Assembly (NCBI RefSeq): GCF_020177375.1
Contig: NZ_JAIWHV010000002.1
Coordinates: 1-64,000, forward strand
DNA from: Saliphagus infecundisoli
GTDB taxonomy: Archaea; Halobacteriota; Halobacteria; Halobacteriales; Natrialbaceae
Length of the DNA stretch: 64,000 nucleotides
Reading direction: 5' to 3'
Shown one piece after another: positions 6,014 to 7,968 of this stretch (within the stretch, counting starts at the first letter, position 1; each line of letters opens with the position of its first letter). Under the pieces are notes generated by a model. It was not told where the DNA came from and made no database searches. It saw only the letters and a list, made by a program, of their open reading frames with translations. Both the position numbers and the translations under genes were made by a program.

Positions 6014-6098
6014 GTCCGAGCGTTTGCCGCCGGCCCTATAAGAGTCCGGCGTCGTCGCCGACGATGATCCACGAGACGCCTCGATCCGAGACGGGAAT

Positions 6099-6310
6099 TG
6101 ACCTCCTCCCGCGCCTAAAGTCGCGGGAATCCCACCATGGGATTTCAGGCCGAGCGCGGCCCTAAGGTTTCAAGACGCATACGCTCCACACGTCTCTTGC
6201 TGGGTGTCAGCATCGGCTTGGCTGTCTTGCGGGCCGGTCAAACGGCCCCCTTCCTCAGCCGAGTCATCGCCATCCGTGTGTTCTCTTGAATGGCTCTCTC
6301 CGCCGAGGTA
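6099..6310 (-). ncRNA. Predicted omega-RNA overlapping the 3' end of tnpB
   Basis: TnpB proteins use an RNA transcribed from the 3' end of their own gene through the right end. Haloarchaeal IS1341-type genes are known to give sense-overlapping RNAs of this kind. The right end here folds into a cccgcg/cgcggg hairpin and stops at ggtca. The flanking sequence that would be the guide reads attcccgtctcggatcg on the minus strand. The 5' boundary and processing are guesses. Confidence 0.5.
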
Positions 6311-7405
6311 GCGGTCTGCAATATTGAGCGCGGCGTTGATGTCCGCGTGGTACTCCGAAACCCAACACTCCGAGTTGGAACACTTGAACGTCGCTTGGTC
6401 GGGGCGGTAGCCCTGTTCTCCGCAACAGTGGCACGTCTTCGAGGTGTACGCGGGATTCACCGTCTCCACACGAATCCCCTTCTCGGCGGCTTTGTAGCGG
6501 AGTTGGGCGTGCATCTTCGCAAAGCCCCATCCGTGCAAGCGCCGGTTCATGAACGCGCCGTAGTCCATGTTCTCGCGGATATGCGTCAAGTCTTCGAGGA
6601 CCAGTATGGGGTTCTCGAATTGGTCGGCGTAGGCGACGACCTCCGACGTGACCGTGTGAAGGATGTGGTCGATGTGTCGCCACAACTCGTCGCCGTAGGA
6701 TTCGGCGATACGCTCGCTTCCGCGTTGCTGCAGGCGTCGAGTCGCCGTGAAGTATGTCTCACGGAGTTGCCGTACTCGCTTCCCATCGTCGTTCCAGAGG
6801 TTGGGTGTAGCCGGGGAGCCGCGCTCGTCACGGTGACACACCGTTACCAAAGAGGCTTCCCCGATGTCTACCCCAATCGGCGTTTCGTCCGCCGAACTGG
6901 ATCGTTCCTCCACGTCCCGAGTTGCGACGACGTGCAAGTACCACTCACCGCCACGGTCGAACAGCCGACACTCGCCCATCGTCGCGTCCCCCGCGTGCAA
7001 CGCTTCCAGCCACTCTCGCTGTTCGGGGTTCGGTTGCGCGGGAAGCCACAGGTGGTAGTCGTCGTGGTGCGGGATTTTGACGTACCACTCGATGGCGTTC
7101 TGTGGTTTGTGGTCGAGCTTCGGACCTTCGTTCGTGAACCGAACCGCGTGGTCGTCGTGAAGCTCTTGCGCGTCGTAGCTTCCGCCACAGAGTTGTGGGA
7201 CGTACTTCTTGAGCGCGTTCTTCGCGTATCCGCTCAGGTCGTAGTTTACCACCACGTCATTCGCTTCGGTCTGGGTGGTACAGTTGGCGTTGAACGCGGC
7301 TTCGAGAGCGTCTTGGTACGCCCGCTTTGTCTCGCAGAGTTTGCGGTGCTTGTGGGCGTTCGGCTCCACAAGCTTGAGTTCCAGCGTCTCGGTGAGTTCG
7401 GTCAC
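6170..7405 (-). CDS. tnpB: TnpB, RNA-guided RuvC-type nuclease of IS200/IS605
   Basis: The 411-residue length is full for the family. The RuvC-like active site appears intact: Asp180 in GVDIG, Glu271 in VLEDL and Asp355 in HADINAA. The zinc ribbon is present (TCHCC around 324-328, C342, C347). TnpB is the ancestor of Cas12: it is guided by omega-RNA to cut DNA beside a short motif and so helps the element persist. It starts with GTG and overlaps the tnpA stop codon (GTGA), implying translational coupling. The C-terminal ~45 residues are acidic and polar and overlap the predicted omega-RNA. Confidence 0.93.
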   Translation of the reverse strand: MTELTETLELKLVEPNAHKHRKLCETKRAYQDALEAAFNANCTTQTEANDVVVNYDLSGYAKNALKKYVPQLCGGSYDAQELHDDHAVRFTNEGPKLDHKPQNAIEWYVKIPHHDDYHLWLPAQPNPEQREWLEALHAGDATMGECRLFDRGGEWYLHVVATRDVEERSSSADETPIGVDIGEASLVTVCHRDERGSPATPNLWNDDGKRVRQLRETYFTATRRLQQRGSERIAESYGDELWRHIDHILHTVTSEVVAYADQFENPILVLEDLTHIRENMDYGAFMNRRLHGWGFAKMHAQLRYKAAEKGIRVETVNPAYTSKTCHCCGEQGYRPDQATFKCSNSECWVSEYHADINAALNIADRYLGGESHSREHTDGDDSAEEGGRLTGPQDSQADADTQQETCGAYAS

Positions 7406-7797
7406 TGTTCGTCCTCCTCATGACGCTGGATGTAGTCTTGAACCGTTTCGCTTGAGACGTGTCCTGCTGTTCCGGCGTAGTAGCCGCGCGCCCACTTGAT
7501 TTTCTCGCCGTCGTGGTCGGCGTAGCGGTGGTTGTATTTCCGCGAACTGATGCCTTTGAACCAGTTGGCGAGAAGTGACGGGGCGTGCTTCGGTGGACTA
7601 CTTACGAACAGGTGTACGTGGTCGGATTGGACGGTGAGGTCGACGATCTCCAATCCCTTTTCATCGGAAATTTCGTGGAGTATTCGACGCACACGGCCTG
7701 CTACCTCGTTAACCAGCACCGAGTTGCGGTACTTCGGCAACCACACTATGTGGTAGTTGAGGTCGTAAGTCGCGTGCCGTGTGGTCTTCATCCGCAC
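7402..7797 (-). CDS. tnpA: TnpA, Y1 (HUH) single-strand transposase of IS200/IS605
   Basis: The 131-residue protein is typical for IS200 TnpA. The HUH motif is visible as H60-V-H62 in SDHVHLFV, and the likely nucleophile is Tyr122 in the C-terminal helix (TVQDYIQRH). These enzymes cut and join single-stranded DNA at hairpin-recognised ends. The gene precedes tnpB, overlaps it and is apparently co-transcribed from a promoter within the left end. No frameshift or missing residue is seen, so the protein should be functional. Confidence 0.93.
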   Translation of the reverse strand: MRMKTTRHATYDLNYHIVWLPKYRNSVLVNEVAGRVRRILHEISDEKGLEIVDLTVQSDHVHLFVSSPPKHAPSLLANWFKGISSRKYNHRYADHDGEKIKWARGYYAGTAGHVSSETVQDYIQRHEEDEQ

Positions 7798-7968
7798 TAC
7801 ACACTATGGTGAGAGGCGGTCTTAAAACTCCCGAGTGGCATGGGAAATCCGGCCGGTTGTAGCAACGTGGACCGGACGCACTATGCCTACCGCTCGACCC
7901 GCGCCTGAAGACGCGGGTATGCGCTCGCACTATGTATCACCGTCCCTCGAGTCGCACGGACGGCGGCG

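What the first reader, a model, noticed from the sequence alone, without database searches (positions are those of the whole stretch)
6099..7927. Apparently active IS200/IS605 element with intact TnpA, TnpB and a readable omega-RNA guide
All TnpA (HUH, Tyr122) and TnpB (D180, E271, D355, zinc ribbon) catalytic residues are present, tnpA and tnpB overlap by GTGA, and both ends are complete. The flank at the right end (attcccgtctcggatcg on the minus strand) would be the guide. Haloarchaeal TnpB proteins at high salt are little characterised.
Basis: partly seen in the sequence, partly recalled or inferred. Interest (0 to 1): 0.6.

Follow-up and report, generated by a model that had tools for sequence, protein, structure and literature searches.

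The report
Intact haloarchaeal jumping gene with RNA-guided nuclease
This is a complete but ordinary small jumping gene of salt-loving archaea that carries an RNA-guided DNA-cutting enzyme; comparing its guide RNA with others shows that a long-unexplained archaeal RNA family, HgcC, is very probably the same kind of guide RNA.

Summary
The element is a structurally intact IS200/IS605 insertion, 1,838 bp, at window 6098-7935 on the minus strand, with a Y1 TnpA and a TnpB overlapping by GTGA. More than 35 relatives in different sites fix both ends, and two empty sites in other genomes confirm them to the base: target motif TGAT at 7939-7936, right end GGTCAA, guide from 6097 (TTCCCGTCTCGGATCG). 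Catalytic residues are invariant in relatives, both genes are under purifying selection, and the omega-RNA scaffold is supported by covariation (28 of 47 pairs with two-sided changes). 'Active' is not shown for this copy: nearest relative 93%, no empty allele of this site held. By itself it is a new copy of a known kind (relatives of ISH35, ISNma12, ISHla21). Its omega-RNA led further: Rfam HgcC (RF00062), an archaeal RNA of unresolved function, ends at the same kind of transposon right end, obeys the same terminal pairing code (88 of 89 ends, pooled) and has the same end-to-loop pseudoknot with compensatory changes. HgcC is very probably the guide RNA of archaeal TnpB elements. No held paper says so.

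The parts
7936..7939 (-). target / TAM tetranucleotide TGAT (left cleavage site CL); host sequence kept on excision
   Evidence: Conserved across relatives with unrelated flanks; present next to the guide match in the empty sites of L033 and L041.
7898..7935 (-). left end: spacer, guide tetranucleotide CATA (7921-7918, GL) and hairpin CCCGCG...CGCGGG
   Evidence: Alignment of left ends; TGAT pairs with CATA by the IS608 rule (rule from own knowledge), 21 of 25 copies, with a TGAC/CATG class elsewhere in the same genome.
7402..7797 (-). tnpA, HUH/Y1 single-strand transposase, 131 aa, H60/H62/Y122
6170..7405 (-). tnpB, RNA-guided endonuclease, 411 aa, GTG start overlapping the tnpA stop (GTGA); D180, E271, D355; Cys4 zinc ribbon 325/328/342/347
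6098..6250 (-). omega-RNA scaffold: core helices overlapping the tnpB 3' end and running to the right end; further covarying helices extend upstream to about 6308
   Evidence: Covariation in 41 sequences, 28 of 47 pairs with two-sided changes, 0 of 500 shuffles; Rfam HgcC match at 6088-6250, E 3.9e-4, below the gathering score.
6236..6241 (-). hairpin loop TTGACC that pairs with the terminal GGTCAA (pseudoknot)
   Evidence: 99.2% of cells paired in A1; covaries with the terminal hexamer across families.
6098..6131 (-). right end: guide tetranucleotide GATT (6131-6128, GR), hairpin CCCGCG...CGCGGG, terminal cleavage site TCAA (6101-6098, CR)
   Evidence: CR/GR complementarity at position 4 in 88 of 89 right ends.
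6082..6097 (-). predicted 16-nt guide TTCCCGTCTCGGATCG (host flank)
   Evidence: First base after the right end by alignment. TGAT + guide does not occur elsewhere in the genome; the donor site itself reads TCAA + guide, and the only other match has 3 mismatches.

Best explanation
A structurally intact IS200/IS605 (IS605 group) element of haloarchaea. Inferred from its relatives' known biology: TnpA excises a single-stranded circle by cutting after TGAT on the left and after TCAA on the right, each cut site being recognised by a tetranucleotide at the foot of a hairpin (CATA left, GATT right), and reinserts it 3' of another TGAT. The 3' part of the tnpB transcript folds into an omega-RNA whose last 16-20 nt, copied from the right flank, guide TnpB to cut the vacated TGAT + guide site, so that repair from a sister chromosome restores the element. 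Shown here: the anatomy, exact ends, target motif, empty sites of relatives, the pairing code at both ends, RNA structure and pseudoknot, intact catalytic residues, and purifying selection. Not shown: expression, cleavage, or movement of this particular copy.
For: Both genes and domains. Invariant catalytic and zinc residues. Predicted fold matches Cas12f and TnpB structures including ISDra2 TnpB 8h1j, E 2e-10 (mean pLDDT only 70). Precise ends in more than 35 relatives. Empty sites without gap at the joint: L033 joined flanks in 12 fetched loci of other genomes, with the 20-nt guide matching perfectly next to TGAT in L120; L041 in 3 loci. RNA covariation. Terminal code 88/89. dN/dS 0.10-0.21 for tnpB and 0.05-0.27 for tnpA. 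L034/L065 99.9% identical at two places of one plasmid.
Against: No near-identical sister copy (best 92.7% among aligned relatives). No same-genus genome is held, so the empty allele of this site could not be looked for; in other genera the flanking DUF6159 gene lies in a different context. Single-sequence folding of the RNA is only mildly better than shuffles (z -1.9). No expression data.
Confidence: 0.94

Rival explanations
1. A fossil copy: structurally complete but no longer moving in this host, kept by chance or recently silenced.
For: No sister copy above about 94% in the genome; the second full-length copy has tnpA broken by another IS with a 10-bp target duplication; contigs ending in other transposon ends limit what can be seen.
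Against: No stop or frameshift; both genes under strong purifying selection against every relative; both ends match the pairing code exactly.
Confidence: 0.3
2. TnpB has been domesticated for a host function (defence or regulation) and is retained apart from transposition.
For: Many archaeal genomes keep tnpB without tnpA (own knowledge); the genome holds about 16 other TnpB-related loci.
Against: Here tnpA, both ends and the target motif are intact and co-conserved; copies sit at unrelated sites in different genera; the RuvC triad is intact, unlike nuclease-dead TnpB-derived repressors (own knowledge).
Confidence: 0.04
3. The right-end RNA structure is only the DNA hairpin needed by TnpA, with no guide RNA function.
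For: The terminal hairpin and TCAA are needed by TnpA on DNA anyway.
Against: Covarying helices and the loop-to-end pseudoknot lie up to 210 nt from the end, inside tnpB, where TnpA is not known to need anything; the same architecture is known in ISDra2 omega-RNA (PMC10097598), and sotRNAs of the same kind are expressed in H. salinarum (PMC8303175).
Confidence: 0.03

Closest known systems
ISH35, ISNma12, ISHla21, ISNpe10 (ISfinder-named haloarchaeal IS200/IS605 elements)
   Same: Same gene order, about the same length (about 1.83-1.92 kb), about 77-78% DNA identity over the whole element, same GGTCAA end.
   Different: About 22% DNA divergence; different insertion sites and guides.
ISDra2 (Deinococcus) TnpA/TnpB/omega-RNA
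   Same: Y1 TnpA; RuvC D-E-D TnpB (D191/E278/D361 there); guide from the right flank; pseudoknot between the end of the scaffold and an upstream hairpin loop (PMC10097598).
   Different: Target motif TGAT (four bases seen conserved) instead of TTGAT; pseudoknot loop at -144 instead of about -103; low sequence identity.
Halobacterium sotRNAs, Rfam sot0042 / sot2652
   Same: Omega-RNAs processed from the 3' end of tnpB in haloarchaea (PMC8303175, PMC12558985). Three TnpB relatives in this same genome score above the sot0042 cut-off.
   Different: The window's RNA matches neither model; it belongs to a different scaffold type.
HgcC RNA (RF00062)
   Same: Terminal hairpin, GGAGGAGGTCA end, terminal pairing code, end-to-loop pseudoknot, variable sequence after the end; reciprocal model matches.
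   Different: The window scores below the Rfam gathering score (28.5 vs 50). Thermophile HgcC elements encode the RNA divergently from tnpB or without tnpB, with probable target motif TCAC and end TCAG.

Membership tests
IS200/IS605 (IS605 group) | Y1 HUH TnpA | tested here: met
   Y1_Tnp E 1.3e-36; HVH 60-62, Y122.
IS200/IS605 (IS605 group) | subterminal hairpins and cleavage sites read by foot tetranucleotides | tested here: met
   Right: 88/89 ends complementary at position 4. Left: TGAT/CATA in 21 of 25 copies.
IS200/IS605 (IS605 group) | insertion 3' of a fixed tetranucleotide, without target duplication | tested here: met
   Empty sites of L033 and L041: TGAT^guide, no gap or duplication at the joint. 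Shown for relatives, not for the window copy.
IS200/IS605 (IS605 group) | single-strand circle excision and re-insertion | not testable with these tools
   Needs an experiment.
OMEGA TnpB nuclease | RuvC D-E-D and Cys4 zinc ribbon | tested here: met
   Invariant in 21 relatives.
OMEGA TnpB nuclease | structured omega-RNA at the right end with terminal pseudoknot | tested here: met
OMEGA TnpB nuclease | RNA-guided cleavage next to a TAM | not testable with these tools
   The motif TGAT is inferred from insertion sites only.
Rfam HgcC (RF00062) | gathering score of 50 bits | tested here: not met
   Window RNA 28.5 bits, E 3.9e-4, full model length. It works like HgcC but is not filed as a member.
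HgcC as an omega-RNA | 3' boundary is an IS200/IS605 right end with the terminal code | tested here: met
   12 of 12 HgcC ends at or above the cut-off: TCAG/GAAC or TCAC/GAAG.
HgcC as an omega-RNA | end-to-loop pseudoknot | tested here: met
   GGTCAG/CTGACC 12 of 12 (11 HgcC hits plus L183), GGTCAC/GTGACC in L181; haloarchaeal GGTCAA/TTGACC 51 of 55, no cross-matches between the GGTCAA and GGTCAG classes.
HgcC as an omega-RNA | binds TnpB and guides cleavage | not testable with these tools
   Needs an experiment.

The most novel reading that the evidence does not exclude
The orphan archaeal RNA family HgcC (RF00062) is the omega (guide) RNA of archaeal IS200/IS605 TnpB. In thermophilic archaea it is encoded in an unusual layout: a roughly 1.3-kb element with tnpB on one strand and the guide RNA transcribed divergently from its own promoter, plus tnpB-less copies of roughly 210 bp that could supply guides in trans. 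The last base of such elements is held by two codes at once: DNA pairing with the transposase's guide tetranucleotide and an RNA pseudoknot with the nuclease's scaffold.
Probability: 0.8. Interest if true: 0.62.

Novelty: new member of a known kind. Interest (0 to 1): 0.45.

Why it matters
The element itself is a clean, complete haloarchaeal TnpB system with exact ends, target motif and guide, ready for a test of RNA-guided cutting at high salt. The wider gain is that comparing its guide RNA offers a function for HgcC, an archaeal RNA first found by computation and Northern blot and still described as unresolved in 2017 (PMC4247193, PMC5732400). It explains why HgcC is transcribed from transposase genes (PMC4247193) and why its last bases vary (they are the guide), and it predicts that solo HgcC copies program TnpB in trans. 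All of these are directly testable in Thermococcus or Methanocaldococcus.

Tried and rejected
Empty allele of the window site: no same-genus genome is held, and DUF6159 orthologues in other genera lack the SnoaL neighbour within about 1.5 kb. Rfam at gathering score finds no RNA here. Single-sequence folding is weak evidence (z -1.9). The two contig-end fragments C74/C2 looked like two partial copies but are best read as one element split by another IS. The sotRNA paper of Gomes-Filho 2015 is not held. An empty site for a solo HgcC could only be shown approximately (L189 vs L199). An off-target search of the guide in the own genome gave only a 3-mismatch site without TGAT. TnpB in haloviruses is at most 43% identical, so there is no sign of a recent viral vehicle.

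Full report
WHAT IS THERE. On the minus strand, tnpA (7797-7402, 131 aa) and tnpB (7405-6170, 411 aa) overlap by GTGA. TnpA is a Y1 transposase (Pfam Y1_Tnp, E 1.3e-36; close to the solved proteins 2f4f and 2ec2, E about 1e-36) with HVH at 60-62 and Tyr122. TnpB carries the Cas12f1-like TNB domain, matches Cas12f and TnpB structures by sequence and by predicted fold (AlphaFold mean pLDDT 70; ISFba1 8iaz, ISDra2 8h1j and many Cas12f). D180, E271, D355 and C325, C328, C342, C347 are invariant in 21 relatives.

EXACT ENDS. One scan gave 68 loci of relatives. Aligned in unrelated flanks, similarity begins at TGAT and ends at GGTCAA. Joining the flanks of relatives and searching haloarchaeal genomes found contiguous empty sites for two insertions: the L033 site in 12 fetched loci from other genomes and the L041 site in three loci, each without a gap at the joint, reading TGAT^guide (the TGAT reads TGGT in some of the more distant alleles). 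In L120 the 20-nt guide of L033 is matched perfectly next to TGAT. In the window this puts the target motif at 7939-7936, the element at 7935-6098 and the guide from 6097 (TTCCCGTCTCGGATCG).

THE PAIRING CODE. In IS608 (own knowledge) a tetranucleotide at the foot of each end hairpin reads the cleavage site: positions 1-2 pair crosswise and position 4 with position 4. Here the left site TGAT faces CATA, and the right site TCAA faces GATT. For 89 right ends of haloarchaeal and thermophile elements, position 4 is complementary in 88: TCAA/GATT 53, TCAA/GAAT 5, TCAG/GAAC 15, TCAC/GAAG 14, TCAT/GAAA 1. On the left, 21 of 25 copies have TGAT/CATA, and a further class in the same genome has TGAC/CATG.

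THE GUIDE RNA. Forty-one right-end regions were aligned. For a named structure of 47 pairs, 96.4% of cells pair, 28 pairs have two-sided changes and the covariation score is 0.286 against 0.127 in shuffles (0 of 500 reach it) and at most 0.067 when slid. Helices lie up to 210 nt from the end, inside tnpB. The six end bases GGTCAA are the complement of a hairpin loop TTGACC at -144, with 99.2% of cells paired. This is the pseudoknot known in ISDra2 omega-RNA, where -5 to -3 pair with -103 to -105 (PMC10097598), and reported for H. salinarum omega-RNAs (PMC12558985).

HOW INTACT, HOW ACTIVE. dN/dS against relatives is 0.10-0.21 (tnpB) and 0.05-0.27 (tnpA). Family-level mobility is clear: L034 and L065 are 99.9% identical at two places in one plasmid, and L036 and L038, in two genera, are 98.9% identical. 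For the window copy itself the nearest aligned relative is 92.7% (L032), and the other full-length copy in the genome (about 94% over tnpB) is split by another IS with a 10-bp duplication GCGGAAGTAC in tnpA. No empty allele of this site could be found, because no same-genus genome is held. 'Intact' is shown; 'active' is not.

THE HgcC LEAD. Rfam at a relaxed threshold matched the window RNA (6088-6250) to HgcC over the full model, E 3.9e-4, below the gathering score, and did the same in other elements of this type. Ten of 20 such haloarchaeal matches sit at the 3' end of a tnpB on the same strand and none is antisense to one; the other ten have no tnpB found beside them. Genomes with HgcC above the cut-off were then fetched. 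All 12 of those HgcC hits end in an IS200/IS605 right end that obeys the code; the sequence after the end differs from locus to locus; and the end pairs with the HgcC 5' hairpin loop with compensatory change: GGTCAG/CTGACC 12 of 12, against GGTCAA/TTGACC 51 of 55 in haloarchaea, GGTCAC/GTGACC 2 of 3 and TGTCAC/GTGACA 7 of 11. Nine of the HgcC hits come from one genus, so they are not all independent, but three other genera (L168; L169 and L181; L183) show the same. A covariance model made only from the haloarchaeal 3' parts finds 11 of the 12 HgcC hits back at E 6e-7 to 1e-3; L166 is missed.

Two complete HgcC elements in one genome (L180, L184) share 1.3 kb that starts at TGCGG and stops exactly at GGTCAG: left end, tnpB in antisense, divergent promoter region, HgcC. 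Solo HgcC copies of 202-212 bp keep the left end, a promoter-like sequence and the RNA without tnpB; one interrupts a tnpB gene (L167), and one (L189) is absent, approximately, from the matching place of a same-genus genome. Their left flank has TCAC at a fixed spacing in 7 of 9 cases, facing GAAG, as the code predicts. In the literature, T. kodakarensis HgcC RNAs are transcribed from transposase genes and the P. furiosus one is antisense to its transposase gene (PMC4247193), which fits the divergent layout; HgcC function was 'still unresolved' in 2017 (PMC5732400); and no held paper contains both HgcC and TnpB. The Rfam 15 paper lists HgcC and IS605-orfB RNA in one table without linking them. 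Papers outside the library could have made the link.

VERDICT. The finding itself is an ordinary, well-preserved member of a known kind. The comparison it enabled gives a probable function for a long-standing orphan RNA family and shows that the last base of these elements is constrained by both the DNA and the RNA pairing.

Noticed in passing
own genome, contigs C74:159622-160026 and C2:97359-98804 (L101, L100): Second full-length copy, split across two contig ends: its tnpA is interrupted by another IS (10-bp duplication GCGGAAGTAC, terminal repeats TTCTAGTTTA/TAAACTAGAA), while tnpB and the right end are intact with a different guide.
   Followed up: yes
own genome C75:29364-29708 (L103): 345-bp non-autonomous copy with TGAT target, left end, omega-RNA scaffold and GGTCAA right end but no tnpA or tnpB: a likely trans-supplied guide RNA that the window's TnpA and TnpB could use.
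   Followed up: partly
L086:1322-1373: A minimal remnant of about 48 bp: left-end hairpin half fused to right-end hairpin half between TGAT and TCAA (Halorubrum laminariae).
   Followed up: no
L180, L184, L168 (thermophile genomes): HgcC is encoded divergently from tnpB, with tnpB antisense between the left end and HgcC: a guide RNA with its own promoter instead of a processed tnpB 3' end.
   Followed up: partly
own genome, L019, L022, L023: Three further TnpB loci carry sot0042-type omega-RNAs above the Rfam cut-off, so the genome holds at least two different omega-RNA scaffold types.
   Followed up: no
tnpB 3' end, window 6170-6300: The low-confidence C-terminal tail of TnpB (residues about 372-411) is encoded by the omega-RNA scaffold region; the covarying helices there suggest the tail sequence is dictated by RNA structure.
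   Followed up: partly
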